Assembly (NCBI RefSeq): GCF_000966975.1
Contig: NZ_JZWV01000479.1
Coordinates: forward strand, 1-14,667
Origin: Streptomyces katrae
GTDB taxonomy: Bacteria > Actinomycetota > Actinomycetes > Streptomycetales > Streptomycetaceae
Length of the DNA: 14,667 nucleotides
Direction: 5' to 3'
Shown piece after piece: positions 1,699-14,667 of the stretch; position 1 is the stretch's first letter, and each line of letters opens with the position of its first letter. A program made the translations under genes and the position numbers. The notes beneath the pieces are model-generated. The model was not told the origin of the DNA, made no database searches, and saw nothing but the letters and a program-made list of their open reading frames with translations.

Positions 1699-2643
1699 GT
1701 GGCCGCACGGCCTTTGAGTGTTGTCGGCGGGGCTGATCTTCCGGAGGTTCCGGGGTCGGTCCCGCCTCCGCATACGGTCCGTCAGCTCCTGGGCGTGCGG
1801 ATGAGGGCGGCTCGCAAGGCCGCGAAACTGAAGATCGCCGACGTGGTGGAGCGAGGCGTGGTCAGTTCCCAGTCGGTTCTCAGCAGGATCGAGAACGGGC
1901 ACGAGAACGTGACCGTCAACGAGAAGCTGATCGAGGGTCTCCTGGCCTTCTACGGGGTGACCGACCCGGAGGAGCTGCGGGTGATCCGCCGCCGGGTGGC
2001 GGAGCTGGAGGGCCAGTCGGCATGGTGGACCGCGCACGACGGCCTGGTCGTGGGTGAGTTCGCCGACCTGTTGTATATGGAGAGGGCGGCCGATCGGATC
2101 ACCGTCTACGAGTCCGTGTTCGTGCCGGGGGTACTGCAGGTGCCGTCCTACATGGACGCGGTGATGACGCACGTCTGCCTGACCCCTGAGGAGCGCGAGC
2201 GCGCTCACAAGCGCCAGCAGCTGCGCAAGGACCGCCAGAGGCTGCTGGACGACGAGGGCTCCCGGCAGTACACCGCGATCATCGAGGAAGCGGTGCTGCT
2301 GCGGACGGTCGGCAGCCGGGCAGTGATGCGTGAGCAGCTGCGCCACCTGCTCAACCTGTGCGAGAACCGCAAGTCGGTTCACATCCGGGTGTTCCCCATG
2401 TCCGCCTGGGAGCAGGCCCTGCCCATGACGGCGTCGGTGACGCTGTTGCAGTTCCCGCGCGACCGGGGCGGCCAGGACATGCTGTACGCGGACACGGCGG
2501 GCAGTGGCGGCTCCTGGCTGCGGGAGCCGAGGGGCGAGATGGTCAAGGCGGCGCTGGAGCGGGTGCGTGAGCACGCGTGGGACAAGAGGGAAACTCTGAA
2601 GTTCCTGGACGCGCGGATCGCCGAGCTGGTCGACCCGCGCTAG
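1699..2643 (+). CDS. XRE-family regulator with DUF5753 domain
   Basis: A 314-aa cytoplasmic DNA-binding protein from GTG 1699, which has GAGGAG six bases upstream. ATG 1657, preceded by a G-rich run, would add 14 residues and cannot be excluded. Residues about 28-87 form an XRE helix-turn-helix (TVRQLLGVRMRAARKAAKLK, then SSQSVLSRIENGHENVTV). The rest matches DUF5753, the Scr1-type C-terminal domain: GEFADLLYMERAADRITVYE, VFVPGVLQVPSYM, then the ENRKSVHIRVFPMSAWEQAL strand and a SVTLLQFP segment. Length is normal for the family. These regulators usually pair with DUF397 proteins, as here. The ligand is unknown. Its stop codon overlaps the stop of the converging methyltransferase gene, leaving no room for a terminator. 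Confidence 0.92.
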   Translation: MAARPLSVVGGADLPEVPGSVPPPHTVRQLLGVRMRAARKAAKLKIADVVERGVVSSQSVLSRIENGHENVTVNEKLIEGLLAFYGVTDPEELRVIRRRVAELEGQSAWWTAHDGLVVGEFADLLYMERAADRITVYESVFVPGVLQVPSYMDAVMTHVCLTPEERERAHKRQQLRKDRQRLLDDEGSRQYTAIIEEAVLLRTVGSRAVMREQLRHLLNLCENRKSVHIRVFPMSAWEQALPMTASVTLLQFPRDRGGQDMLYADTAGSGGSWLREPRGEMVKAALERVREHAWDKRETLKFLDARIAELVDPR

Positions 2644-3428
2644 CGGATCCGGGCGACGCCGCCGCAGGCGATCCAGTCAGCGCCGGCCGGGCGAAGCGCG
2701 AGGCCGGTGTCGGGGAGCCAGGTGGATACCTCGACGGGGGCAGGGTGTTCGAGGAGGTCTGATCCGTCGAAGAACCTGGCGATGTCGGCGGTGGACCGGA
2801 CGCGGCCCCAGCTGCCGATGGTGCGCTTCATGAACGCGCTGAGCTCTTCGCGCGAGGTGGCGTCGTCGCTGGCGATGTGGGAGATGACGAGGTAGCTACC
2901 GGCCGGGAGGCGGGCGGCGACGTCACGGACGAGGAGCCAGGGGTCGTCGTCGTCGGTGAGGCAGTGCAGGACGGAGACGAAGAGGGCGGCGACTGGACGG
3001 TCGTCGGCAAGGATCCGGCGCACGCGCGGAACGCTGAAGATACGCTCCGGGTCTCGGATGTCGGCTTCGACGACCGCGGTGGTCAGCAGGTCCTCTTCGA
3101 GGACCATACGGCCGTGGGCACAGACCATGGGGTCGTTGTCGATGTAGACCACGCTGGCCGTGGGAGTGACTTCTTGGGCCACCTCGTGGACGTTGGGGCG
3201 GGTGGGCAGGCCGGTCCCGAAGTCGAGGAAACGACGGACGCCATGGGTCTGTGCGAGATAGCGCACCGCACGCACCAGGAAAGCCCGGTTGGCCTGCGCC
3301 AGTTGCTGCATGTCGGGAGCGATGTCCAGGAGTTCAGCGCATGCCCGGCGGTCGCTGGGATAGTTGTCGGTACCGCCGATGAGGTAATCGTACATTCGGG
3401 CATAGCTGGGCCTGGTGACATCGATCAT
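2640..3428 (-). CDS. SAM-dependent methyltransferase, SAV2177/DUF574 family
   Basis: A 262-aa protein from ATG 3428. Residues 2-24 carry the family's opening motif (DVTRPSYARMYDYLIGGTDN), residues 67-85 the SAM-binding motif I region (RFLDFGTGLPTRPNVHEVAQ), and about 94-104 the acidic-loop region (VYIDNDPMVCAHG). LFVSVLHCLTDDDDP follows. The family is widespread in streptomycetes with SAV2177 as the type member; the methyl acceptor is unknown. The opening motif usually has a short tail before it, so the start may lie upstream. The frame is open to GTG 3578 and third-position GC stays high there, giving an extra 50 residues with a CC...CxxC pattern, but neither start has a well-spaced ribosome site. 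The tail overlaps the XRE gene by CTAG. Confidence 0.9.
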   Translation of the reverse strand: MIDVTRPSYARMYDYLIGGTDNYPSDRRACAELLDIAPDMQQLAQANRAFLVRAVRYLAQTHGVRRFLDFGTGLPTRPNVHEVAQEVTPTASVVYIDNDPMVCAHGRMVLEEDLLTTAVVEADIRDPERIFSVPRVRRILADDRPVAALFVSVLHCLTDDDDPWLLVRDVAARLPAGSYLVISHIASDDATSREELSAFMKRTIGSWGRVRSTADIARFFDGSDLLEHPAPVEVSTWLPDTGLALRPAGADWIACGGVARIR

Positions 3429-3644
3429 GGGATTGGTCGGCTCCCGATGGCGCCGGTCTGCCCCGTCGCAGATCCGGCAGTTGAGTAGCGCCACATGGTA
3501 GGCCCACTCGTCACGGCAGCACCAGGTCGCGATGATGTTGCGGTGATGCGCGGGAGGTGAATCAGCCGCTGCTTTCACGCGGGCGCAGACGCCGATGCCC
3601 GGGCCCTGACCTCGCAGAATGCGTGGAATATGCGCCTGGAGAAT

Positions 3645-4151
3645 TCACTTCGGAGCGGACAGCGTGCGCAGTGCGGCGCGGTGTAGGACGCGGAAGGCGC
3701 TGTCGGAGATGCCCATCAGCTCGGCGGCGGTCTCGGCGGGCAGGCCGAGCCGGTGGCGCAGGATGACCGCGTCGGCCTGCGGGCAGGGCAGGTCAGCCCC
3801 GCAACGGGACCCGCGCTCGGCAGCGTCCTCGATCAGGGAGGTGAACATCTCCCACACCGCGGCGGCCGGGGACGCACAGGCCAGCGCCTGGGGCCAGCAC
3901 GGGGCCAGTGCGTCGAGCGCGTGGTCGGCCAGACGTGCGCCGCACCGGGTGCTGGAGAGCCGGACGGCGGCGTAGCGGATGTAGAGCGGCCGGTACCGGG
4001 AGCAGAACGCCTCGTAGGACGCGTCCGTCACGGTGTCGGTCGGAGCGTAGGGCCGGCGGCTCCGTGAGTTGTCTCGCACGGCTGGCGGCTGGCGTATGGG
4101 GCCGGGCGCGGGGGAATGGCGGGCAGGCTGGGACACGGCAGATTCGAGCAT
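3645..4151 (-). CDS. Sigma-70 region 4-like HTH protein
   Basis: A 168-aa protein. After a basic, proline-rich N-terminal stretch, residues about 43-65 read DASYEAFCSRYRPLYIRYAA, like the opening of ECF-type sigma factors, and the middle ACASPAAAVWEMFTSLIEDA is typical of streptomycete sigma-like proteins. Residues about 127-165 (QADAVILRHRLGLPAETAAE, LMGISDSAFRVLHRAALRTL) form the region-4 helix-turn-helix that contacts the -35 box. Region 2 is weak, so it may be a sigma-like regulator rather than a full sigma factor. ATG 4151 has only a weak AGGGT upstream; GTG 4031 (128 aa) would remove the low-complexity start. No anti-sigma gene is adjacent, but a small membrane protein lies immediately upstream on the same strand. 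Confidence 0.7.
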   Translation of the reverse strand: MLESAVSQPARHSPAPGPIRQPPAVRDNSRSRRPYAPTDTVTDASYEAFCSRYRPLYIRYAAVRLSSTRCGARLADHALDALAPCWPQALACASPAAAVWEMFTSLIEDAAERGSRCGADLPCPQADAVILRHRLGLPAETAAELMGISDSAFRVLHRAALRTLSAPK

Positions 4152-4562: not shown

Positions 4563-5001
4563 GCGAATCTCCTATGTCGTTTCGTGTGCGCCGGACGCAT
4601 CGGTCCCGGGGGTGGCACCCCCCGGGACCTTCGCTTTGTCCGGAGCCCGCACCGTAACCAGCGGGGGCACAGGTGTGCCAAGACCGCACCCCCGTGAAAA
4701 CGGAACCCCATCCCCCAGAAACTGCGCCCGAGCTGACGGCTCTGCACCCCGCACGGCGACTCAAGCAGCTTGAGAAGGCGCACACTTCACAACAAATCGA
4801 TCACATGCGGTCATGCAGTAGGGCTCGCCCGAGAAAACGATCACCGGTACAGCAGAGCGCTGTTCACCCGAAAGAAGCAAGACCGCGGCTAGTCGGCCGG
4901 CCCACATGCACGGCGGCGGAAATCCTCTCCCTCCGCCCCTGCAGGGGGGAGGTCAATGGGGTGACGATGATTGCTGGCGGCCAATACACCCTCGGACCCT
5001 G
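4563..5001. other. Intergenic region with no supported gene
   Basis: Between the small membrane protein start and the Rhs fragment I find one strong inverted repeat (listed separately) and no convincing gene. A plus-strand frame from GTG 4694 (KTEPHPPETAPELTALHPAR...) is partly protein-like but has no ribosome site and loses GC bias at third positions after about 28 codons. The AT-richer part around 4780-4870 may hold promoters. Confidence 0.45.
4602..4629. repeat. Perfect 11-bp inverted repeat
   Basis: GGTCCCGGGGG (4602-4612) and CCCCCGGGACC (4619-4629) flank a six-base loop. It lies 40 bases upstream of the small membrane protein start, inside its probable 5' leader, so it is either a terminator insulating this gene from upstream minus-strand transcription or an RNA structure or operator controlling it. 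Confidence 0.6.
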
Positions 5002-6123
5002 CGCACACGCAACACCTTCGAGCCCGTCTACGGACTGAAGCAGACCGTCCAGGCCGAAGCCATCAGCCCCAACGGACCCGGTGCATGGCAGACGACCGGC
5101 CAGATCTGCGGGACCACCAGCTACGTCCACAACACCGCCAAGAACCTGATCGGCTTGCCCCAGCGCGTCCGCACCACTGCGGGCGACTGCGCACAGGCGG
5201 CAACAGGGGCGTTGCTCTCCGATAGCCGCACGGCCTATGACGCGCCGGGGGCCTTCGGCGTCGCCCCGGACAGGGGCTTGGTCTCCCAGGTCGACACCAA
5301 CGATGCTGCCAGCACGGGCTGGGTCACGACTGCGCGCTCTGAGTACGACGCGCTCGGACGCGTGATCAAGGTGTCCGACGCTGTCGGCCATTCCGTCACG
5401 ACGGCCTACAGTCCGGCGACTGGCCCCGTCTTCAGCATGACCGGCACCGACGTGATGGGTCACACCAGCACGGTGAAGGCCGATCCCGGCCGCAACAGTC
5501 CGATCGAGAAGACGGACATCAACGGTCGCAAGGTCACGGCCGCCTACGACAACCTGGGGCGCTCGACCGCCGTATGGACTCCGTCGCAGAAGCCGGGGAC
5601 GGACAAGGCTGCCTACACCTTCTCGTACCAAATCAGCGAGCACGAGCCGCCTGCGGTCACCAGCAGCACCCTTCAGGACAACGGCACCTACAAGCAGACC
5701 GTCGACATCTACGACGGCCTGCTGCGCCCACGCCAGAGCCAGGGCGAGGCCCTCGGCGGCGGGCGGGTGATCAAGGACACGCTCTACAACGCAAACGGCA
5801 CGGTCAGCCAGACACACAACGCCTACTACGCCGAGGGCGCGCCGACGAAGCAGATCTTCGTCCCGGAATCCGTGTTCCACGTCCCGAACTCCACCGCTAC
5901 GGCCTATGACGGCCTCGGCCGGGCCGTTCGCGCCACCACGCTCCACTCCGACGTGCCGCAGTACTCCTCGACCATCCAGTACGGCGGGGACTACACCCTC
6001 AGCCGCTCGGCCATGTCCGCCGACGGCAACACCCCGCTCCCGGGCAGCCGCGCCTCGAAGACCTGGACCGACCCCCTGGGCCGGACCTCGGCCGTCGAAC
6101 ACGCCACGGCCTGGGACCTCACC
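5002..6123 (+). pseudogene. Internal fragment of an Rhs/YD-repeat protein
   Basis: About 374 codons match the YD-repeat core of Rhs/WapA-type secreted proteins. The fragment opens with RTRNTFEPVYGLKQTVQAEA and contains repeated YD units: TAYDAPGAFG, SEYDALGRVIKVSDAVGHSV, AAYDNLGRSTAVWT, DIYDGLLRPRQSQGEALGGG, TAYDGLGRAVRATT and TDPLGRTSAVEHATAWDLT. Intact proteins usually exceed 1,500 residues, with a signal peptide and a C-terminal toxin domain. Here there is no signal sequence, no upstream RHS part, no core-ending motif and no toxin tip. The open frame has ATG 4906 upstream, but the first 32 residues are not family-like, and after 6123 homology stops although the frame stays open to 6450. 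I read it as a relic left by recombination. Confidence 0.8.
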
Positions 6124-6206
6124 TTGCGCATCCGCTTGTCAGGTGCTCATCTGCGCCGGCGCACATCCGGCACGAACACCCAGCTCACACGCGTTTCTCT
6201 CCACCA

Positions 6207-6233
6207 CTGCTCCCGCCCGGCGGGCGGGAGCAG
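6207..6233. terminator. Strong bidirectional hairpin
   Basis: CTGCTCCCGCCC (6207-6218) and GGGCGGGAGCAG (6222-6233) are perfect 12-base complements with a three-base loop. It lies between the Rhs fragment (+) and the flavoprotein gene (-), so it could stop transcription from both sides. The rest of 6124-6398 shows no gene I can support. Confidence 0.65.
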
Positions 6234-6398
6234 GAGCTCGAATTCGCCGCTCGGCCGTCTGCGCCAGGTCTGGGCCGACGGTCCGCGGGTCCCCTCAGGG
6301 CGTGATCGGCAACGTGCTGGCCGGCGTCGTAGGCGTGGAGATCCGCGTCACCGCCGCGGCTCTGCTGTCCGGGGCGCGGCGGGTGGACCGGGCCGGCG

Positions 6399-6968
6399 TC
6401 AGGTGGTGCGTGGTTCGTCCAGGGTATCGAGGGCGAGGTCCCAGGGGTAGGCGTCGACGTTGCCGTGCTTTGGCGGGTGGGGGCGGAATCCGGGTCCGGT
6501 GCCGTCGTCCAGGAGGTAGCGGACTCCTGCTCCGCGCAGGGTGGCGATGGCGGGGGCGAGGGCGGGGTGCTGGGCCTGGGCGGCGTTGATGTAGGGGAGG
6601 GCGACGACGGGGCGGTGGGGCATGCCGAGGGCTTCGGTGATGAGGCCGAGGGCGAGGGTGTCGGCGTGGCCGGCCGCCCACTTCGTGGTGGTGTTCAAGG
6701 TGGCGGGGGCGACGAGGAGGGCGTCGGGGTCGGGCAGGACGTCGGATTGGGAGGGGAGTTTGTAGGTGTGGCGGACCGGGTGTCCGGTCAGCGCTCGCCA
6801 GGCGTCGAGCTCGCTGTCGCCGCCGGCTTCTTCGACCGACCATCGGTGGGCGGCGGGAGTGAGGACGAGGGCGACGTCCCAGCCTCGGGCCTGGGCGGCC
6901 TTGATGCCGGTGGTGACGTGGCGGGCGGGTGGTGCGGCGCAGGAGATGACGTACAGGGTTCGGGTCAC
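6399..6968 (-). CDS. Flavoprotein (PPC decarboxylase/EpiD-like fold)
   Basis: A 189-aa cytoplasmic protein in the flavoprotein superfamily of phosphopantothenoylcysteine decarboxylase, EpiD and UbiX. It begins TRTLYVISCAAPPARHVTTG, then GWDVALVLTPAAHRW, the key PDALLVAPATLNTTTKWAAG segment (compare the PASANT motif that binds FMN), ADTLALGLITEALGMPHRPV, and VALPYINAAQAQHP where decarboxylases have the substrate-clamp motif. FMN binding is therefore likely; the reaction is unknown, and it need not be a coenzyme A enzyme. GTG 6968 overlaps the stop of the upstream regulator gene by GTGA, so translation is coupled. It probably acts with, or modifies the signal for, that regulator. Confidence 0.85.
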   Translation of the reverse strand: MTRTLYVISCAAPPARHVTTGIKAAQARGWDVALVLTPAAHRWSVEEAGGDSELDAWRALTGHPVRHTYKLPSQSDVLPDPDALLVAPATLNTTTKWAAGHADTLALGLITEALGMPHRPVVALPYINAAQAQHPALAPAIATLRGAGVRYLLDDGTGPGFRPHPPKHGNVDAYPWDLALDTLDEPRTT

Positions 6969-8215
6969 CCGGGTAGTCCACAGCGCTCGGCGAGCGCGCG
7001 CAACCGCCCCTCGGCGCTCCCTGCGCCCAGAAGGCGGAGGTCCTCGACGAGTTGGTGGGTGCGGGGGCGGCCGAGGACTTCCTCGGGGGCTTCGCGTTCG
7101 GCGTCCAGGAGGGTGTCGACGGCCTTCTGTCGGTTCCCGGCCTGGGTGTAGGCGTGGGCGAGGTCGGTCAGGAGGTGGGCGCGGCGCTCGCGCGGGAGGG
7201 CGGCGCGTTGGTCGGCGGTGATGGCCTGGGCGACTGCGGCGCCGGCTTCGCCTTCGTAGAGCTTGACGTGGGCGGCGAGCCGGTAGAGGGAGACGTTCGT
7301 GGTGTTGAAGGCGGTGAAGAGGGCGTTGCCGTCCGCGTCGGGCGGGAGCTGGCGGGCGTGTTCGTCCGCCTGGGCGAGGAGGTCGGGGACCTGGCGGGCG
7401 GCGGACGGTGCGCGGCGGTCGGTGAGGGTGGCGGCGGTGGCCTGGGCCATGGCGGCCTTGAGGTAGAGCATGCCGAGGGTGGACAGGCCGACGGCCCCGC
7501 GGCCGGTGAGGTCGGGGGTGAGGCGGGTGGCTGCTGCCTGTGCGAAGGCGGCGGCTGCGTGGGGCTGTTCGTCGGCGGTGAGTGCGTCGGTGAGGTGGCG
7601 GGCGGCGGAGGCCTGGATGACGGGGTCGCCGGAGCGTTCGGCGGCCAGGACGGCGCGGTGGCCGGCGAGGGAGGCGATGTCGGTGGCTCCGGCTTTGATG
7701 GCGAGGGCTTCGGTGAGCTGGAGGGTCATGGACAGGGCGCGGTAGGCGGTGAGCTGGTCGTCGCCGTCGTGGAGGGCGGCGGCGTGGGTGGCGTCGGTGA
7801 GGAGGGCGGGGATGCGGCCGCTGAGGCTGGTGAAGGCGGCGCTGGCCTGGAAGAGGCGCCAGGCGTGGTGGACGGAGCGGCGCAGGGTGTCCACGTCGAG
7901 CGGGTGGGCGCTGGCGTCGGGGGTGCCGGTGGCGATGTCGTGGCGGTGCAGGGCCACGCGGATCGCCTCCATCTCGCCCGCCGCGTCGGCGGTTTCGTCG
8001 GAGGTGGTGTCGGCGAGGAGGACGGGCAGGGGGACGGCCAGGACGCGGGCGGCGGCTTCGAGGACGGAGAGGCGTGGGTCGGCCTGGCGGGAGCCGGCCT
8101 CCAGGTCCTGGACCCAGCGTTTGCTCTTGCCCATCAGCGTGCCGAACGCGGTCTGGGTCAGGCGGCGGCGCCCGCGCCAGCAGGCGATGTTCTCTCCGAT
8201 GCGGCGGGTGTCCAT
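6965..8215 (-). CDS. XRE-family regulator with TPR-like C-terminal region
   Basis: A 416-aa DNA-binding protein. ATG 8215 is chosen because GGGGAG lies eight bases upstream and the HTH begins directly (MDTRRIGENIACWRGRRRLT); the frame is open to 8254 but without a ribosome site. Residues about 5-62 are the HTH (TQTAFGTLMGKSKRWVQDLE, AGSRQADPRLSVLE). From about residue 105 the protein is all-helical with alanine-rich repeats resembling tetratricopeptides, ending with LLTDLAHAYTQAGNRQKAVD. Such helical domains often bind peptides or small molecules. It is first in an operon with the flavoprotein and divergent from an unknown gene; the 19-bp palindrome in the divergent gap is its likely binding site. 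Confidence 0.87.
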   Translation of the reverse strand: MDTRRIGENIACWRGRRRLTQTAFGTLMGKSKRWVQDLEAGSRQADPRLSVLEAAARVLAVPLPVLLADTTSDETADAAGEMEAIRVALHRHDIATGTPDASAHPLDVDTLRRSVHHAWRLFQASAAFTSLSGRIPALLTDATHAAALHDGDDQLTAYRALSMTLQLTEALAIKAGATDIASLAGHRAVLAAERSGDPVIQASAARHLTDALTADEQPHAAAAFAQAAATRLTPDLTGRGAVGLSTLGMLYLKAAMAQATAATLTDRRAPSAARQVPDLLAQADEHARQLPPDADGNALFTAFNTTNVSLYRLAAHVKLYEGEAGAAVAQAITADQRAALPRERRAHLLTDLAHAYTQAGNRQKAVDTLLDAEREAPEEVLGRPRTHQLVEDLRLLGAGSAEGRLRALAERCGLPG

Positions 8216-8245
8216 GAGCACGGCTCCCCAAGAGCGGTGGAATCT

Positions 8246-8264
8246 GGCACGCACACTGCGTGCC
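8246..8264. promoter_or_regulatory. 19-bp palindromic operator, copy 1
   Basis: GGCACGCA-CAC-TGCGTGCC: perfect eight-base arms around a three-base spacer. It ends 33 bases before ATG 8298 (+) and 30 bases before ATG 8215 (-), so it can control both divergent genes. An identical copy lies at 8859-8877. The likely binder is the XRE-TPR protein next to it; this is inference from location. Confidence 0.85.
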
Positions 8265-8285
8265 TACATACCGTTGTACTCCGCC

Positions 8286-8297
8286 TACGGTGCGTCC
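8286..8297 (+). promoter_or_regulatory. -10 box for a leaderless transcript, gene 8298
   Basis: TACGGT (8286-8291) fits the actinobacterial TANNNT -10 box and is followed by six bases and then ATG, which would put the transcription start on the start codon. No ribosome site is present. There is no good -35 box; the palindrome's right arm and the following bases occupy that place, suggesting activator-dependent or tightly repressed transcription. Confidence 0.65.
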
Positions 8298-8774
8298 ATG
8301 ACCCGATCCGACAACGGCACCCTGCCGTGGGCTGCCCTCCTCGACCCGACTCCCGAAGTCTTCTTCGAATTCCGCAAGGGCCACTCGGTATGGGCCGCGT
8401 GCGGCTGGACCTGGGACGCCGTCGCCATCACGCCTCTGCAAAGAGGCCTCGCGGCCCTCGACGAGCTGGCTCTCCCGATGGACGGCGAATACACCGTCAT
8501 CGCCGACCACGCGCGCCAGGAACTCATCGTCTACATCCCCTGCGGCACAGGTGCCGTCCTCGACGGCCTCCCGGGCGTACGTGTGCTGGGCCGGGGCACC
8601 GACCTCCTTGTCCCGGCCGGCCAGTACGGGACCTTCGCCGCGGCCTGGCTCAGCCGCCCCCGCGGCGAAGCCGATGAGGCCTTCATCACCCCCGCCCGGC
8701 TGCGCGCCGCACTCCTCGCGGCGGATGCCGCGCACCACACCTACGAGACTGCGGAGCCCGCCCGCGCCGAATAG
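8298..8774 (+). CDS. Hypothetical protein, palindrome-controlled
   Basis: A 158-aa soluble protein with no signal peptide or membrane segment. Visible features are WAACGWTWDAVAITPLQRGL (residues 32-51), an EYTVIADHARQELIVYIPCG strand pair (64-83), GVRVLGRGTDLLVPAG (93-108) and a C-terminal helix TPARLRAALLAADAAHH. The alternation of strands with GTDLLVP and WLSRP recalls streptomycete proteins annotated as hypothetical or distantly primase/polymerase-like, but I see no catalytic motif and assign no function. ATG 8298 is used because the TACGGT -10 box lies six bases upstream; the frame is open further upstream, opposite the regulator gene. Third-position GC bias supports coding. Confidence 0.82.
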   Translation: MTRSDNGTLPWAALLDPTPEVFFEFRKGHSVWAACGWTWDAVAITPLQRGLAALDELALPMDGEYTVIADHARQELIVYIPCGTGAVLDGLPGVRVLGRGTDLLVPAGQYGTFAAAWLSRPRGEADEAFITPARLRAALLAADAAHHTYETAEPARAE

Positions 8775-8800
8775 CGCTCCCCCGCTCCCCTTCACCCTCA

Positions 8801-8833
8801 CCGGCTCCCGTGTACTGCCCCTCGGGCAGCCGG
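8801..8833 (+). terminator. Hairpin between the two small unknown genes
   Basis: CTGCCC-CTC-GGGCAG (8815-8829) is a perfect six-base stem, and CCGGC (8801-8805) can pair with GCCGG (8829-8833) around it, apart from one shared base. A short T-rich run follows at 8841-8851. It would separate gene 8298 from gene 8911, supporting separate promoters. Confidence 0.45.
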
Positions 8834-8858
8834 CGGGGGCCTTCCTCTGTTACAAGAA

Positions 8859-8877
8859 GGCACGCACACTGCGTGCC
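8859..8877. promoter_or_regulatory. 19-bp palindromic operator, copy 2
   Basis: The sequence is identical to the 8246-8264 palindrome and again ends exactly 33 bases before an ATG (8911). The flanking DNA differs, so this is not a recent segmental duplication; the palindrome itself is conserved. Confidence 0.85.
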
Positions 8878-8898
8878 CACCCCTGCGAAATGGGGCCG

Positions 8899-8910
8899 TA
8901 CGGTCCGGAC
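8899..8910 (+). promoter_or_regulatory. -10 box for a leaderless transcript, gene 8911
   Basis: TACGGT (8899-8904), six bases, then ATG: the same geometry as at 8286-8297. No ribosome site is seen in the short leader, and no consensus -35 box is present. The shared TACGGT and the shared 33-base spacing argue for one mode of control. Confidence 0.65.
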
Positions 8911-9333
8911 ATGACCGAGACCCACCACACCCTCTCCGTCCCCGCCGCCGATGCCACGCTCCAGCCTCAGGTGTTGAGCGGCCCCTCGTTCGGTCAGGAC
9001 CTCGTCCGCACCCTTCATCAGGCCACCAGCGTGGTCGGCGGTCTCTCCTTCCATGACGTGGAGACGAGCGACATCGAGGTGTCCGCCTTCGGTGCGATCG
9101 TCTGCACCGGCGACACCCCTGCCGACGCCCTCCAAGCTGCCGCCGCAGTCGCACGCCAGGCCCCCGGACTGGAGATCCACGCCCTGGCCTGGGCCCGGAC
9201 CGACGGACCCCGCGAAGGCACCTTCGAGTACAAGGTGACGATGACGGTCACCGCCCCCGACCCCGCCACGGGCGAACACAGCGGCGCCACCCACCAGGAG
9301 CGCGGCCGCCACCTTTTGGGCCAGCCTAAGTAG
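8911..9333 (+). CDS. Hypothetical protein, palindrome-controlled
   Basis: A 140-aa soluble protein I do not recognise. Residues 1-25 are polar (MTETHHTLSVPAADATLQPQ), followed by PSFGQDLVRTLHQATSVVGG, a likely helix. The middle VSAFGAIVCTGDTPADALQA and AAAVARQAPGLEIHALAWAR suggest an alpha/beta fold, and FEYKVTMTVTAPDP is a clear beta strand. No signal peptide, membrane helix, metal-binding cluster or catalytic motif is visible. ATG 8911 is fixed by the TACGGT box six bases upstream. It shares its control palindrome with gene 8298, so the two probably work in the same process as the XRE-TPR regulator and flavoprotein. Confidence 0.82.
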   Translation: MTETHHTLSVPAADATLQPQVLSGPSFGQDLVRTLHQATSVVGGLSFHDVETSDIEVSAFGAIVCTGDTPADALQAAAAVARQAPGLEIHALAWARTDGPREGTFEYKVTMTVTAPDPATGEHSGATHQERGRHLLGQPK

Positions 9334-9362: not shown

Positions 9363-9393
9363 CGCCGCGCTTGGCGATCGGAACGGCTCCTTT

Positions 9394-9422
9394 GGTGATC
9401 GATTCACGCTCGAATGATCACC
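9394..9422. repeat. Imperfect palindrome upstream of the sigma cassette
   Basis: GGTGATCGATT (9394-9404) and AATGATCACC (9413-9422) are complementary apart from one bulged G. A related motif, TTGGCGATCG, lies at 9371-9380 in front of TTGGTGATCG (9392-9401). This is a plausible operator for the coupled sigma cassette, about 120 bases before the first start codon. Confidence 0.4.
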
Positions 9423-9433
9423 GTATTTGCGCG

Positions 9434-9463
9434 TTGAAGTTTTTTCGGGGTCGCGTGTACCCA
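9434..9463 (+). promoter_or_regulatory. Candidate promoter of the sigma cassette
   Basis: TTGAAG (9434-9439) and TACCCA (9458-9463) are 18 bases apart in a locally T-rich stretch, directly after the imperfect palindrome and about 70 bases before the ribosome site at 9533. The -10 match is poor, so confidence is low. Confidence 0.25.
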
Positions 9464-9542
9464 AACGAGGCCTCCCGAACGCTGTCCTTCTTAGAGGCAC
9501 CCGCGAAAGGACCCACGGTGCTTGATCTTCCTAGGAGGACAC

Positions 9543-9695
9543 GTGCAGCTGAACGCTGCGCTGCTGGTGGCCGCAGTCGAGCCACCGGTGCCACCCGTCG
9601 GCCCAGAACGGATCGCTCGGCCGGCTCCCGGCCGCATAGCGGTTCGCACCAGCGACCGGTGCCAGGGACGCGGCGGTTGCGGGGTGGGCTGGTGA
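9543..9695 (+). CDS. Small ORF coupled to the sigma gene
   Basis: A 50-aa ORF starting at GTG 9543 behind a perfect AGGAGG (9533-9538, four-base gap), the strongest ribosome site in this region. The protein starts VQLNAALLVAAVEPPVPPVG and ends CQGRGGCGVGW, with two cysteines near the C-terminus. I do not recognise it. Its TGA overlaps the sigma gene's GTG in a GTGA, so ribosomes finishing it can start the sigma gene, which itself has only a poor ribosome site. It may be a real small protein or mainly a translated leader; the short hydrophobic start is too weak to call a signal or membrane helix. Confidence 0.6.
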   Translation: MQLNAALLVAAVEPPVPPVGPERIARPAPGRIAVRTSDRCQGRGGCGVGW

Positions 9696-10381
9696 GCGAC
9701 GTGGGCACTGCCGAGCACGATGACCCGGCTGGCGCGACGCGCGACACCTGGGGCCGTCACCTGTCCCATCCGGCATCCGAACCGGTCGGCATGCCCCATG
9801 TGATCCGAGACGGTTCGGTGCCTCTGGTGCCGGTGCCGCCGCAGCCGGAGGCCCCGGATCACTGGACACCGGAGCAGGTCGCGAGGTTCCAGGAGTACCA
9901 CGAGCGGTACGCGGAAAAGTTCCTCTGGTACGCGGACGCGAGACTGCCCAGCCGTTTCGACGCTGAGGACGCCGTCCACAGCACCTTCGAGTACGTGGTG
10001 GAGCAGTGGCCCAGGGTGACGACGATGGAGTTCCCTTCCGCCTACGGCTGGACGGTGCTCAGGAGCCGGATCGCCGACCTGCACCGCGAGGGCAGCCGCA
10101 TCGGCCCGGTCGACGACGAGCGGCTGCAGGAGGAGATCGGCCAACGGCCCGTAGGGGACCACGGCGAGGAGATCGTCAACCTGATGAGCCTTCTTGAGGA
10201 GATCAGGGAGCTTCCCGAGCGCCAGGAGCAAGCGCTCGTGCTGGACGCGCTCGGTGTACCGGTCGAGGAGATGGCCGAGCTCATGGGGATCAAGGAGGAA
10301 TCTGCGCGGATGAATCTCAAACGGGCCAAGGCCCGACTGAAGCGGCGGCTTGACGCTGAGGGATGGAGGCGGAAGTGGTGA
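9692..10381 (+). CDS. ECF-like RNA polymerase sigma factor
   Basis: A 229-aa protein from GTG 9692. Residues 1-60 are proline-rich and probably disordered. Residues about 66-135 correspond to region 2 (RFQEYHERYAEKFLWYADAR, RFDAEDAVHSTFEYVVEQWP, SAYGWTVLRSRIADLHREGS), which binds core polymerase and the -10 box. Residues about 165-222 are region 4 (ELPERQEQALVLDALGVPVE, EMAELMGIKEESARMNLKRA), the -35-binding helix-turn-helix. ATG 9791 would drop 33 residues but has no ribosome site. It overlaps genes on both sides by GTGA. No classical anti-sigma factor with a membrane helix is adjacent; the downstream regulator-like protein is the natural candidate to control it. Confidence 0.85.
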   Translation: MSDVGTAEHDDPAGATRDTWGRHLSHPASEPVGMPHVIRDGSVPLVPVPPQPEAPDHWTPEQVARFQEYHERYAEKFLWYADARLPSRFDAEDAVHSTFEYVVEQWPRVTTMEFPSAYGWTVLRSRIADLHREGSRIGPVDDERLQEEIGQRPVGDHGEEIVNLMSLLEEIRELPERQEQALVLDALGVPVEEMAELMGIKEESARMNLKRAKARLKRRLDAEGWRRKW

Positions 10382-12117
10382 GCCAGGCGGACACGTCCTG
10401 GTCCCTTGATGCCGGCGCCGGGGCTGACAGCGGATCCCGGCTGCGGTACGACGTCTCGGCCGCCTACGACCGGCTGATGGTGTCCGCGGCCAGTCGGTGG
10501 CCTCTGCCCGAGCACCCCGGGGTCACGGCCAGCGAGGAGGCGGAGCGGGAACTGGACACGCTGTGCCAGAGCGTTGTGCTCGACCCCCAGTCTGGTCTCG
10601 ACATCGGTCTGCTCGCTGAGGACTTCGGCCTGACCACCAGCGGCGCGGTGGCCTTCGGCTGTCTCCTTCACTTGGTCCGTGACGAAGCCGCCTCCTTCTG
10701 GTGGGAGTTCGCCGCTGGCGCGGGGGAGCACGAGGCCGCCTACCTCTTGATGCTCGACCACAAGCGACGCGCCGAACTCCGCGACGCGGAGCTGTGGCGC
10801 GAGCGGCTCCACTCGGCCCTGACCCCGCGGCCGGAGGGCCCCACCGGTCGCGGCTGGCGTGACCAGCCGCTCCCGTCCGCAGAGCTACGCCAGAAGCTGC
10901 ACCAGGCCACCCGCCATGCCAAACGCCACGAGCACGAGGACCTGGGCGTGATCGTGCTGGCGACCCCGCGTCTGGCCGAGGCCCTCCAGGAGCTCACCAG
11001 CACATCCCTGACCCCGGACAACTCGCGTGAGGACGCCTCCGTTCCCGGCCAGCCCGCTGCGGCGGCGAACGGCCTGCGCGGCGGCCCCGAACCGGCTGAA
11101 GACGCGACGGCCGCACCGGCCGGCTCGGGCCGCGAGACGGGCGCCCCGCCGGTACGGCCTCAGCCGCCGAAGGGATGGACGCCACCGCCGGGCAGGCCCG
11201 GAGAGGCCTTCGACCAGAGCGGTCACGCTCCGGCGGCATGGGAGGACTCTCTTCGGGTCCTGGACGTCCTCCATCTCATCCGCGAGACCGGATCCGCCGA
11301 CATCCCGACCGTCGCCCGAACCGCGGGGATCACCCCTCGTGGAGCAGCCGAGCTCCTGTCGTGGCTGGCCGACAACAGTCTCGGCCGCCGCCTGGACGCG
11401 CACACGTATGGTCCCGGCCCCCTTCTGGTCGAGATCGCGCGCGGCAACTCCATTCTGCAGGGTGTCCTTGACCAGCTGTGTGCCGACACCGGCGCGGCGA
11501 TCTACCTCAGCACCTACACCGACGGGGAGATCCTCATCCCCCCCAGCGCCTCGGGCCCGCAGGCCCCCCAGGTCACCGTGACCGTCGACTTCAAAGAGAC
11601 ACCGCACGCCAGTGCCGTCGGCAAAAGCCTGCTCTCCCAGCTACCCCCCGCCGAACGAGCCGACTTGCTCTCCCGGCACCGCCCCAAGCCCCTGACTCCC
11701 AGAACCATCACCAATGCCGACCGGCTGATCGACACCATCGACCGATACGGCCCGCAGAGCCCCTACTTCGACGTTCTCGAGTACAGCGACGAGGGGGTCT
11801 GCGTCACGATCTCGCTACCCCTGGCCGGGCAGGCGTGCTCGGTCGCGCTTTCCCTGCCCCTCGCCGAGCACCACCGGCTCCTGGACTCGGCCGAAGCTCT
11901 CAGCAACCGCTCCACCGGCCTGTTCCTCGCCCTGGTGCTCGCCACCAACCCCACCACCCCTGCCCCTGTCGCACGTCCCGTGCCGGAGCGCGCCGAATCG
12001 GGACTTGGCCTCACCCGGTCGGGGCTGTGGGCCCCACGCCCCGGCCTGGCGACACCTCCCGCCCTCATCCCCCACCTCGCGGACCATCACCCGCGCCTGC
12101 TCTACACCGCTCGCTGA
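10378..12117 (+). CDS. Composite regulator: novel N-terminus plus IclR-like C-terminus
   Basis: A 579-aa cytoplasmic protein from GTG 10378, which overlaps the sigma stop by GTGA and has GGAGG eight bases upstream. Residues about 20-145 are an alpha-helical region with no family I can name (LRYDVSAAYDRLMVSAASRW, then YLLMLDHKRRAELRDAELWR). Residues 210-285 are a Pro/Ala/Gly-rich linker. Residues about 291-345 look like an IclR winged HTH (LRVLDVLHLIRETGSADIPT), and 355-520 like the IclR ligand-binding domain (SAVGKSLLSQLPPAERADLL, PLTPRTITNADRLIDTIDRY, EYSDEGVCVTISLPL). Normal IclR proteins are about 250 aa with the HTH first, so this is an unusual fusion. It may sense a small molecule and restrain the sigma factor through its N-terminus; that is inference. 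Confidence 0.8.
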   Translation: MSQADTSWSLDAGAGADSGSRLRYDVSAAYDRLMVSAASRWPLPEHPGVTASEEAERELDTLCQSVVLDPQSGLDIGLLAEDFGLTTSGAVAFGCLLHLVRDEAASFWWEFAAGAGEHEAAYLLMLDHKRRAELRDAELWRERLHSALTPRPEGPTGRGWRDQPLPSAELRQKLHQATRHAKRHEHEDLGVIVLATPRLAEALQELTSTSLTPDNSREDASVPGQPAAAANGLRGGPEPAEDATAAPAGSGRETGAPPVRPQPPKGWTPPPGRPGEAFDQSGHAPAAWEDSLRVLDVLHLIRETGSADIPTVARTAGITPRGAAELLSWLADNSLGRRLDAHTYGPGPLLVEIARGNSILQGVLDQLCADTGAAIYLSTYTDGEILIPPSASGPQAPQVTVTVDFKETPHASAVGKSLLSQLPPAERADLLSRHRPKPLTPRTITNADRLIDTIDRYGPQSPYFDVLEYSDEGVCVTISLPLAGQACSVALSLPLAEHHRLLDSAEALSNRSTGLFLALVLATNPTTPAPVARPVPERAESGLGLTRSGLWAPRPGLATPPALIPHLADHHPRLLYTAR

Positions 12118-12508: not shown

Positions 12509-12690
12509 GTTTCCTCGGCTCGTGAAGCCGCAGGATCCGTACGTTCCGACCCGTGACCGCAACGTACGTGCATGGATCCGAAGGTGCCTTGCATCAACAC
12601 GACGCAGCTCTATTTCCCGCAGCGTGCTATCAGTCAGGCCACCCGCGGATCACCGGATCTCCGCGAACGGCCCGGACCGAGGACGTTGCA

Positions 12691-14037
12691 ATGACCGCAG
12701 ATCACGCCCGGAAGAGCGCTGCCCGACAGCAGGCGCATATCTCGGGACAGAATTATCTGCAGGCCGCTTTCAACATTGCCGCAGGCGCGCCCGAACCGGT
12801 CCGCGCGGCAGGACAGCAGTTCGTCTTGTCCTCCGACTTCTGCGGGTCCTTCGCCGGGGTGGTGCACGACCGGAAGTGGCTGGTCGACGTGTATCCGGCT
12901 CAGGCGGGGCGAGGCCTACCGCGCGGGCTCACCCCGTTCGAGGCCCCGCCCCACTCGTGGGAGCGGTACGTGCAGGGCGAGATCAACCATCAACCCCTCC
13001 CTCCGCCCCCTCTTGCGGGAACCGTTCCGCCCCTGCGTGAGTATCAGCAAAATCAGGTCGCAAGGCTGCTGTCCGCGCGGCGTGAGAAAGCTCCCGGCTA
13101 TCTGTGGGCTCTGCCGACAGGATCCGGGAAGACGCCGATGGCCGTCAGGGCGGTCTGTGCGGCAGCGGGGCAGACACCGCAGAAAATCCTGGTGGTGACG
13201 CGCCTGCCCATGGTCCCGGCCTGGCGGGCGGCCATCGACCGCTTCGCCACCAGCCGCCACCGGTGGGTGGTGATCAACCCCGAACGCCTGTGGCGGCTGC
13301 TGCGCCACCCTGACGCCGACCTGCACCGGATGCCAACAGACGGAGCGGCGAAGCTCGTCGCCTACGAGGGCGTACCGCGGGTCGACTGGGACACGGTCAT
13401 CGTCGACGAGTGCCACATGCTCGCCAACTTCGAATCGAGAAGGACCCGCACCCTCCAGCGCCTGCTGGCTCGCAGCGACGGCGGGCACGCGTTCGCCATG
13501 TGGGCGTCGGCCACGCCGTTCTCCGAGCCGGAGGTTAGCGCCTACCTGGCCAGGCTGATCGCCCACGCGGCCGGTGTGCAAGCCCCTGCCGAGGGGGCCG
13601 ACTACCGCCTGTGGCTCAAGGAACTGGGCATGCGGCTGAACAACGACCGGCGGGGGCGCTGGTACCACCGCTTCAACCGCGCGGATGTGAGCCGTCTCAG
13701 GGCCCTGCTCTACGAGTCGGGGGTGGGCTCCGCGGCGACGGCGTCGGACCTGGATCTGCCCGAGCAGGAACGCGACGTCGTGCCCATCCAGCTGTCGGAG
13801 CCGGACCGGGTGCGCTACGAGCGGGCCTGGGAGGAGTTCCGCCGCTCCGAGGGCCTGGCTGTATTCTCCGACCTCGACCCGGGGTCCTACCGCGTCGAGG
13901 CGCTGCGCAAGGTGCAGAAGGCGTCGTTGGTGAAGGCCCCGTACGTGGCGGACATCGTGGTAAAGCAAGTGCGTCAGGGCCGGCAAGTCGTGGTGCCGAT
14001 GTGGTTCGTGAAGTCGATCGAAGAGGTAGCCGTGTGA
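12691..14037 (+). CDS. SF2 DEAD/DEAH-type helicase, truncated by an internal stop
   Basis: A 448-aa ORF. ATG 12691 has GAGGA eight bases upstream; GTG 12553 lacks a ribosome site. After an N-terminal domain (residues 1-110), the first RecA-like domain has the Q-motif-like PPLREYQQNQVARLL, Walker A PTGSGKT (142-148), motif Ia region KILVVTRLPMVPAWRAAIDR, Walker B DECH (239-242) and motif III SAT (273-275). The second domain begins after about residue 360 and reaches GRQVVVPMWFVKSIEEVAV, then TGA. Motifs V and VI are therefore missing from this product, so it is unlikely to translocate on nucleic acid. The frame resumes directly after the stop, so the TGA is probably a recent CGA-to-TGA change or an error. 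Such helicases occur in phage and defence loci; no partner nuclease is seen here. Confidence 0.82.
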   Translation: MTADHARKSAARQQAHISGQNYLQAAFNIAAGAPEPVRAAGQQFVLSSDFCGSFAGVVHDRKWLVDVYPAQAGRGLPRGLTPFEAPPHSWERYVQGEINHQPLPPPPLAGTVPPLREYQQNQVARLLSARREKAPGYLWALPTGSGKTPMAVRAVCAAAGQTPQKILVVTRLPMVPAWRAAIDRFATSRHRWVVINPERLWRLLRHPDADLHRMPTDGAAKLVAYEGVPRVDWDTVIVDECHMLANFESRRTRTLQRLLARSDGGHAFAMWASATPFSEPEVSAYLARLIAHAAGVQAPAEGADYRLWLKELGMRLNNDRRGRWYHRFNRADVSRLRALLYESGVGSAATASDLDLPEQERDVVPIQLSEPDRVRYERAWEEFRRSEGLAVFSDLDPGSYRVEALRKVQKASLVKAPYVADIVVKQVRQGRQVVVPMWFVKSIEEVAV

Positions 14038-14175
14038 ATCGCGCGAGGGCTGCGCAAGGCGGGCCTGGAGGAGCGGGTGGTGGCGATCACCGGGCGCCAC
14101 GTCGAGCTGCGGGAGCGCAAGCGGGTGGCGTTCCAGCGGGGTGAGGCGCTGGTGGTGGTTCTCAACGCGTTGGAG
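14038..14175 (+). pseudogene. Detached C-terminal remnant of the helicase
   Basis: In the helicase frame, the codons after the TGA at 14035-14037 read IARGLRKAGLEERVVAITGR, then VELRERKRVAFQRGEALVVV and LNALEGT. This is the expected stretch between motifs IV and V of an SF2 helicase, where a loaded second RecA domain writes a (F)QxGEaxVVVlna pattern. Homology fades at about 14175, where composition shifts and the IS-like sequence begins, so motif VI and the end of the gene are lost. Confidence 0.6.
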
Positions 14176-14667
14176 GGCACCGCCTTGCTGAGCGAGGGCC
14201 CGTGCCACCTTCCGCGTCTGCTGGGATTTCAGCAACTCAAAGATGGCCAGCAGAGCGCAGATGCCAAGCTTGATTCTTGTTGCCAAGACAGGACCAAATT
14301 TGGAGCCGGGCTCCTTGCTGCGGGGCGCCAGTTGCACTATCGGCGTCGAGGCGTGGAGGCCCGGTCCACGATGGGCGGGGCATCCTGCCCAAGCTGTGGA
14401 CTGTGGTCAGTGCGAGTGCACGGGTTGTACCTGCTGTTTCCTCGCGATCTTCCGACCGCCGGCCAGCACGTGGTGTTGTCCTTGAGAGTTCGCCGGTTCT
14501 CCTGCAGGGAGACTGCCTGCCCTCGGCGGACCTTTGCCGAGCAGATACCTGGCCTCACCCGCCGATACGAAGGCGAACCCAACGGCTGCGCTCGGCCCTC
14601 GCATCCGTCGGCCTTGCCTTGGCCGGCCGTCCTGTCGCCCGGATGGCCCATGCCTTCGGCGCACGGG
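14176..14667 (+). mobile_element. ISL3-family insertion sequence, left part
   Basis: From about 14176 the sequence leaves the helicase and base composition drops, as in IS terminal DNA, before an ISL3-type transposase appears. The element runs off the window, so the second end and the inverted repeats cannot be compared; the exact left boundary (between about 14160 and 14230) is uncertain. Its insertion explains the loss of the helicase C-terminus. Confidence 0.6.
14353..14667 (+). pseudogene. ISL3-family transposase N-terminus, frameshifted
   Basis: The frame VEARSTMGGASCPSCGLWS followed by VLSLRVRRFSCRETACPRRT and FAEQIPGLTRRY is the zinc-binding N-terminal domain of ISL3 transposases: CPSCG gives CxxC, and CRETAC gives Cx4C. 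At about 14569 the frame breaks. The expected continuation RRTQRLRSALASVGLALAGR, PVARMAHAFGAR appears in another frame, as if one G had been lost in TAC-GGA-AGG. The catalytic DDE domain lies outside the window. The start is unclear: residues upstream of 14353 do not look like the usual transposase beginning, and GTG 14353 is only a convenient boundary. Confidence 0.7.

What the first reader, a model, noticed from the sequence alone, without database searches (positions are those of the whole stretch)
6399..9333. Four-gene regulon built around an identical 19-bp palindrome
The palindrome GGCACGCACACTGCGTGCC occurs twice, each ending exactly 33 bases before an ATG. The two downstream proteins (158 and 140 aa) are of unknown function, and the flanking DNA differs, so the motif and its spacing seem to be under selection. 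The first copy also sits 30 bases from the start of the XRE-TPR regulator, which overlaps a flavoprotein gene by GTGA. The simplest reading is an autoregulated module in which a ligand-sensing XRE-TPR protein controls itself, a flavoenzyme and two unknown effectors. I know of no named system with this composition.
Basis: partly seen in the sequence, partly recalled or inferred. Interest (0 to 1): 0.78.

Follow-up and report, generated by a model that had tools for sequence, protein, structure and literature searches.

The report
Regulator–flavoprotein switch with matching operators
Many Streptomyces plasmids and chromosomes carry a DNA-binding regulator nearly always paired with a flavin-type protein, and the short palindrome in front of its target genes changes together with the regulator's DNA-reading helix, so the two genes named here are very likely its direct targets.

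Summary
In detail: GGCACGCACACTGCGTGCC lies at 8246-8264 and 8859-8877, each ending 33 nt before an ATG. It is far beyond chance and is conserved. In 11 loci of this type (window included) the palindrome + -10 + start arrangement occurs exactly twice; in 12 loci of a sister type, where the second gene follows in the same operon, exactly once. Over 65 non-redundant loci the palindrome letters track two residues of the XRE recognition helix (Q/E with half-site base 2: 65 of 65; D/not-D with base 6: 64 of 65). The rules were noted before a further search that obeyed them 16 of 16; the D/base-6 pair changed together in 7 of 8 independent pairs. This is strong sequence evidence that the regulator binds these sites. 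The module is real, with two corrections: the flavoprotein is the regulator's constant partner (63 of 65 loci) rather than one effector among several; and the targets are interchangeable, small plasmid genes here and sometimes RiPP genes elsewhere. Likely mechanism: the regulator activates effectors from the -35 region of leaderless promoters and blocks its own promoter; the flavoprotein modulates it. The sign of regulation, leaderless starts and the flavoprotein's role are inferred.

The parts
6399..6968 (-). HFCD-type flavoprotein gene (189 aa), constant partner of the regulator; stop included
   Evidence: PF02441 36.4 bits, cut-off 22.7; next to XRE in 63 of 65 loci
6965..8215 (-). XRE-TPR-like regulator gene (416 aa); recognition helix ..KRWVQDLE..
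   Evidence: PF13560 30.4 bits, cut-off 27; helix/operator covariation
8246..8264 (.). operator 1 GGCACGCACACTGCGTGCC, between the regulator and the 158-aa gene
   Evidence: same place in 11 class A and, as CCCAC..., 12 class B loci
8273..8278 (-). TACAAC on the minus strand (GTTGTA on plus), proposed -10 of the regulator gene
   Evidence: conserved at first sites, mostly as TTGTAC or GTATAC; TTGTAC/GTATAC absent at 10 of 10 second sites tested
8286..8291 (+). TACGGT, proposed -10 of the leaderless 158-aa gene
   Evidence: same offset at first and second sites
8298..8774 (+). 158-aa protein gene, first effector; plasmid family, weakly like a primase-polymerase fold
8859..8877 (.). operator 2 GGCACGCACACTGCGTGCC
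8899..8904 (+). TACGGT, proposed -10 of the leaderless 140-aa gene
8911..9333 (+). 140-aa protein gene, second effector
   Evidence: relative behind the second site in 10 of 11 class A loci, window included

Best explanation
A mobile regulatory cassette. An XRE-type regulator, presumably a dimer, reads the palindrome with its recognition helix. At operator 1 it sits at -52 to -34 of the divergent 158-aa promoter (counting the ATG A as +1), which has a -10 but no recognisable -35, and over the start region of its own promoter; at operator 2 it sits in the same place before the 140-aa gene. Hence it most likely activates both effectors and restrains its own operon (regulator + flavoprotein). The adjacent HFCD flavoprotein most likely sets the regulator's activity, by binding it or by making or removing its ligand. 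Shown by sequence: site conservation, one site per transcription unit, near-fixed spacing, helix-operator covariation, flavoprotein linkage. Inferred: activation rather than repression (about 65:35), autorepression, leaderless starts, the flavoprotein's role, and the effectors' jobs (plasmid-linked, unknown).
For: Scan blind to the motif's letters (palindrome + TAnnnT-type -10 + start): exactly 2 hits in each of 11 class A loci and 1 in each of 12 class B loci, none elsewhere in their 265 kb, 0 in 131 kb of 31 control loci (L044 and L045 are near-identical). Class A has the 140-aa gene in 10 of 11 and the DUF6415-like gene in 0 of 11; class B DUF6415-like 12 of 12 and 140-aa 0 of 12; in the 9 annotated class B loci it overlaps the 158 gene by 4 nt, so one promoter suffices. 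Helix Q with NGC 42 of 42, E with CCC 23 of 23; D with base 6 G 37, other residue with base 6 A 27, one exception L013. Rules noted, new rows: 16 of 16. Tree from the part behind the HTH, 60 rows: 7 independent pairs same way, 0 opposite, 1 no change, p 0.016. Both sites of a locus share the variant, e.g. L006 GGCGAACA twice. Regulator -10-like element only beside the regulator. Flavoprotein follows in 63 of 65.
Against: No expression or binding data. L013 breaks the base-6 rule (D with A). The Q/E switch happened once on the tree, so its perfect fit is one event. Many Streptomyces promoters lack a good -35 (recalled), so activation is not proven; -35 hexamers were printed for 30 of 61 rows only. 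The same palindrome also occurs in three integrative-element-like loci without such a promoter, two of them in genomes without a regulator match. 158-like genes occur on plasmids with other neighbours and no palindrome 33 nt upstream (L060-L063).
Confidence: 0.62

Rival explanations
1. Same regulator and operators, but a repressor of all promoters: the protein covers the -35 region of the effector genes and its own start region, and the flavoprotein or a ligand releases it.
For: A protein bound at -52 to -34 can also exclude RNA polymerase; small XRE proteins are often repressors (recalled); in solved structures the profile matches only the HTH of SinR and HipB.
Against: Effector promoters keep a -10 at fixed offset and show no TTGACA-like hexamer at the -35 place (30 first-site rows printed, second sites by eye), as expected where an activator replaces it; WhiJ9, a comparable Streptomyces XRE, activates its divergent target and appears to repress itself (PMC10294661, passages).
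Confidence: 0.27
2. The palindrome is read by another host protein or works as an RNA hairpin; its closeness to the XRE gene is incidental.
For: Perfect 8-bp stem with 3-nt loop; occurs after a small gene in three integrative-element-like loci.
Against: Letters track the XRE recognition helix over independent branches; at the second sites it lies upstream of the predicted transcript.
Confidence: 0.04
3. The set is a toxin-antitoxin or anti-phage unit, with the palindrome an ordinary antitoxin operator.
For: Plasmid location; weak HipB-type score of the HTH; HTH_VI and capH models (E 5e-7, 9e-7) and, for the 140-aa protein, DrmA (E 0.0084) in the defence library.
Against: The HipB score is below its cut-off, the defence-library matches of the regulator cover the HTH alone and the DrmA match is weak; the 158-aa protein, the flavoprotein and three DUF6415-like proteins match none; the pair also fronts RiPP genes.
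Confidence: 0.07

Closest known systems
WhiJ9-BldB9-iosA and the other WhiJ/BldB/AbaA cassettes of Streptomyces (PMC10294661, passages only)
   Same: XRE regulator next to a small partner gene and an exchangeable target; activation of the target with signs of autorepression reported for WhiJ9
   Different: Here the partner is a flavoprotein, no DUF5753 match in 11 of 11 scanned regulators, and the site is a 19-bp palindrome centred near -43, not direct repeats 113 bp upstream of the start
XRE-DUF397 pairs of S. coelicolor, e.g. Scr1/Scr2 (PMC6262351, PMC10364602; search listing and abstract start only)
   Same: XRE plus co-encoded partner
   Different: Partner family and regulator C-terminus
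RRNPP regulators (PlcR, Rgg, NprR; recalled)
   Same: N-terminal XRE HTH and a long, possibly TPR, C-terminal part
   Different: No TPR match above cut-off; a peptide gene was not looked for; PDB matches of the profile limited to the HTH
HFCD flavoproteins: CoaC/CoaBC, EpiD type (PF02441; the group name HFCD and EpiD are recalled)
   Same: Flavoprotein profile; residues 56-151 align to CoaBC, including VAPAT.N...KWA.G.AD
   Different: CoaBC model 23.3 bits against a cut-off of 219.7; encoded next to a regulator

Membership tests
WhiJ / XRE-DUF397 cassette | XRE HTH regulator | tested here: met
   PF13560 in 11 of 11
WhiJ / XRE-DUF397 cassette | DUF5753 C-terminal domain (recalled as typical) | tested here: not met
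   Pfam scan of 11 members lists only HTH_31 and HTH_3 at E 0.01
WhiJ / XRE-DUF397 cassette | DUF397/BldB partner encoded next to it | tested here: not met
   a flavoprotein follows in 63 of 65; no DUF397 annotated beside it in 11 plasmid loci (gene tables incomplete)
RRNPP peptide-sensing regulators | TPR domain | tested here: inconclusive
   TPR_7 E 0.017, 15.6 bits of 27.9; none at E 0.01 in 11
RRNPP peptide-sensing regulators | cognate exported peptide | not tested
   no search for propeptides was made
Flavoprotein family PF02441 | profile above curated cut-off | tested here: met
   36.4 bits, cut-off 22.7
Phosphopantothenoylcysteine decarboxylase (CoaC/CoaBC) | equivalog profile cut-off | tested here: not met
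   23.3 of 219.7 and 19.9 of 261.4 bits
Type II toxin-antitoxin (HipB type) | family profile cut-off | tested here: not met
   23.9 of 71.65 bits
Prim-Pol domain (158-aa protein) | PF09250 above cut-off | tested here: not met
   no match for the window protein at E up to 1; chromosomal relative L034 21.0 of 22.8 bits
Prim-Pol domain (158-aa protein) | same fold as solved prim-pol domains | tested here: inconclusive

The most novel reading that the evidence does not exclude
An unnamed two-protein control system, XRE-TPR-like regulator plus an HFCD flavoprotein that works as sensor or ligand-maker rather than as a tailoring enzyme, widespread in this family of actinobacteria, carried by plasmids and set in front of exchangeable cargo (plasmid genes, graspetide and radical-SAM RiPP genes), with a readable two-residue DNA recognition code.
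Probability: 0.45. Interest if true: 0.75.

Novelty: new variant of a known kind. Interest (0 to 1): 0.6.

Why it matters
It gives a testable operator, promoter layout and DNA-recognition code for a regulator family of unknown function, and lets its targets be read from genomes. At least three of 20 fetched loci place it beside an ATP-grasp RiPP maturase, so it may be a handle on such peptide clusters. It also asks a new question: what a CoaC/EpiD-like flavoprotein does as the fixed partner of a transcription factor.

Tried and rejected
Flavoprotein as a mere effector: rejected, because it follows the regulator in 63 of 65 loci while the divergent genes change. Fixed four-gene regulon: rejected, since class B has the DUF6415-like gene instead of the 140-aa gene and L041 has a 58-aa ORF behind the second site. 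Phage origin of the 158-aa gene: no match in phage records, although several relatives lie on contigs of about 48 kb. 'Restriction endonuclease' name of the class B partner: of three scanned, all match DUF6415 below its cut-off and none a nuclease. Structure of the 140-aa protein: model pLDDT 59, not used. Genome-wide regulon by loose motif: at up to 3 mismatches forward 88 and control 94 matches, no excess. Literature: searches listed no paper that I recognised, from title and abstract start, as being on this regulator-flavoprotein pair or its operator (open-licence PMC library only); passages of PMC8939145 on graspetide loci (no 'flavo' word) and of PMC13118837 did not mention it.

Rows dropped before counts: one search had 126 regulator loci, many of them copies or overlaps; 61 non-redundant rows passed (same first 120 residues and same operator = one row); four more (L015, L083, L092, L156) were added by hand because a regular expression or a filter on base 17 had missed them; L071/L135 (start lost) and L148 (N-terminus absent) were left out, as were the 19 distant regulators L099-L117 (about 35% identity), none of which showed this palindrome. 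Of the 21 loci L138-L158, four repeated earlier rows and L148 was left out, leaving 16. Five of 65 rows were too short for the tree.

Full report
What is there. The window (a 14,667-base contig of an unnamed draft genome, G000, very likely Streptomyces to judge by its relatives) holds, on the minus strand, a 416-aa XRE regulator and a flavoprotein gene overlapping by GTGA, and on the plus strand a 158-aa and a 140-aa gene. The palindrome GGCACGCACACTGCGTGCC stands at 8246-8264 and 8859-8877, 33 nt before each ATG; chance expectation is about 0.01. At the same offset behind both copies lies TACGGT, a -10-like box 6 nt before the ATG, as expected of leaderless transcripts (inference; no start was mapped).

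Relatives. The 158-aa family has 24 hits and the 140-aa family 15 in the protein database, the window's own included, and both lie on Streptomyces plasmids (17 and 6 plasmid records); the 158-aa protein has none in phage records (the 140-aa protein was not tried there). The same block, flavoprotein - regulator - divergent 158 - 140, is on plasmids NZ_CP134204 and NZ_CP108634. In others the 158 gene overlaps a gene annotated restriction endonuclease; three of these were scanned and match only DUF6415 (and one a weak antitoxin model), below cut-off.

Two operator classes. Class A operators read NGCRNRCA-n3-TGYNYGC or close to it; class B read CCCACAC-type. A scan blind to the letters (palindrome, -10, start codon) found exactly two sites in each of 11 class A loci (window included), exactly one in each of 12 class B loci, nothing else in 265 kb of these loci, and none in 131 kb of 31 control loci. 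Class A carries the 140-aa gene in 10 of 11 with its own site and the DUF6415-like gene in 0 of 11; class B carries DUF6415-like in 12 of 12 and the 140-aa gene in 0 of 12. So there is one operator per transcription unit. In L041 the second promoter is kept but a 58-aa ORF lies behind it. Spacing to the 158 ATG is 33 nt in all 23 but L041 (34); to the gene behind the second site 33 in seven and 34 in four of 11.

The recognition code. The residue after RW[VLA] in the recognition helix is Q with NGC at half-site bases 1-3 (42 of 42) and E with CCC (23 of 23); the next residue is D with G at base 6 (37), and E, S, Q, A or F with A at base 6 (27); one exception, L013, has D with A. In a mutual-information scan of 49 helix-region positions against the half-site bases these two pairs rank first and second (normalised 1.0 and 0.90; a third pair, at a position further along the chain with base 2, also rounds to 0.90). 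Both rules were in the notebook; the next search brought 16 new non-redundant rows, all of which obey them. On a tree built only from the part behind the HTH (60 of 65 rows) D changes 9 times and G6 8 times; independent pairs on well-supported branches go the same way 7 times, opposite 0, no change 1, p 0.016. Q/E changed only once, so it counts as one event. The two sites of a locus also vary together (L006: GGCGAACA at both; L044-L046: TGTGCGCC right arms at both).

Promoters. A TACSGT-like box keeps its offset at first and second sites (variants such as TACGTT, TAGCGT, TAACGT occur). A second element, mostly TTGTAC or GTATAC (minus strand TACAAC or TATACC), is conserved only at first sites, next to the regulator gene; those two strings are absent at 10 of 10 second sites tested (L041's second site has TTGTAG, but at the effector -10 offset). 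I read it as the regulator's own -10. The operator then covers the regulator's start region and the effector's -35 position, where no -35-like hexamer is seen (30 of 61 first-site rows printed). This favours activation of effectors with autorepression, as reported for WhiJ9-iosA (PMC10294661, passages read), but a repressor is not excluded.

The regulator-flavoprotein pair. A flavoprotein follows the regulator in 63 of 65 rows; in L055 the regulator appears frameshifted but a flavoprotein is annotated, and L092 is a decayed copy without one. Regulators of this clade occur in 25 of 394 genomes of the family at E 1e-50, own included, in 6 of 17 genera, some on chromosome-sized contigs. In 20 fetched loci outside the 158-aa set the divergent genes vary. 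I gave ten proteins from seven of these loci, chosen by eye from the listing: three loci hold an ATP-grasp RiPP maturase over its cut-off (L118, L124, L126; L118 also a precursor and a methyltransferase), one an AmcB-type radical SAM maturase (L137), two other radical SAM proteins without an over-cut-off model (L123, L125), and one protein (L131) matched nothing. The maturase occurs 91 times in 61 genomes, so at least three in 20 loci of mostly 10 kb is well above chance, though L124 and L126 are related and the remaining loci were not scanned.

What the effectors do is open. The 158-aa protein has distant relatives (241 of 392 genomes at E 1e-6, most of those listed near 1e-9), one of which scores just under the Prim-Pol cut-off; its own model resembles prim-pol domains weakly. 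The 140-aa protein has no usable model.

Verdict. The regulon reading is well supported at the level of sequence; its sign, the flavoprotein's part and the effectors' function need the bench. No paper recognised as describing the pair or its operator came up in searches.

Noticed in passing
L162 (own genome C819), L164, L165, around 1500: TGAACAAGGCACGCA-n3-TGCGTGCC also overlaps or follows the stop of a small gene, before what looks by eye like an FtsK-type transfer gene, in three integrative-element-like loci; two of these genomes (G059, G094) gave no regulator match at E 1e-25. No matching promoter; the control pattern gave 0 in 246 genomes, and the other four of seven matches are regulator loci. 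Unexplained.
   Followed up: partly
L009, L010, L067: 140-aa relatives also sit behind XRE + DUF397 pairs on plasmids, L010/L067 with a Prim-Pol-annotated and an HATPase gene, as if the regulator pair were exchangeable.
   Followed up: partly
L060-L063: 158-like genes with (in three of four) a 'restriction endonuclease'-annotated neighbour stand next to a GNAT gene and, in the two scanned, a TPR protein without HTH match; no palindrome 33 nt upstream.
   Followed up: partly
L024 about 1467: A 158-like reading frame runs on into what looks by eye like an HATPase (anti-sigma-like) domain.
   Followed up: no
L125 5571-6215, L126 5215-5868: First divergent gene looks by eye like the 158-aa family (no homology test made); L126 is followed by an ATP-grasp RiPP maturase.
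   Followed up: no
L055 about 2690-3926: Regulator gene appears frameshifted beside an operator and an annotated flavoprotein.
   Followed up: no
L056-L059 upstream of the regulator ATG: Short inverted repeat of the CTCCG...CGGAG kind around the likely ribosome-binding site of the regulator.
   Followed up: no
window 4906-6450, 9371-12117, 2640-3578, 12553-14037, 14077-14667: RHS-repeat protein, ECF-type sigma factor followed by a protein with an IclR C-terminal domain, SAM methyltransferase, ResIII helicase-like and ISL3-type zinc-ribbon frames: a mobile-looking neighbourhood.
   Followed up: no
L007 3134-6950: YcaO, TfuA and MFS transporter genes lie beside the flavoprotein on plasmid NZ_CP108634.
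   Followed up: no
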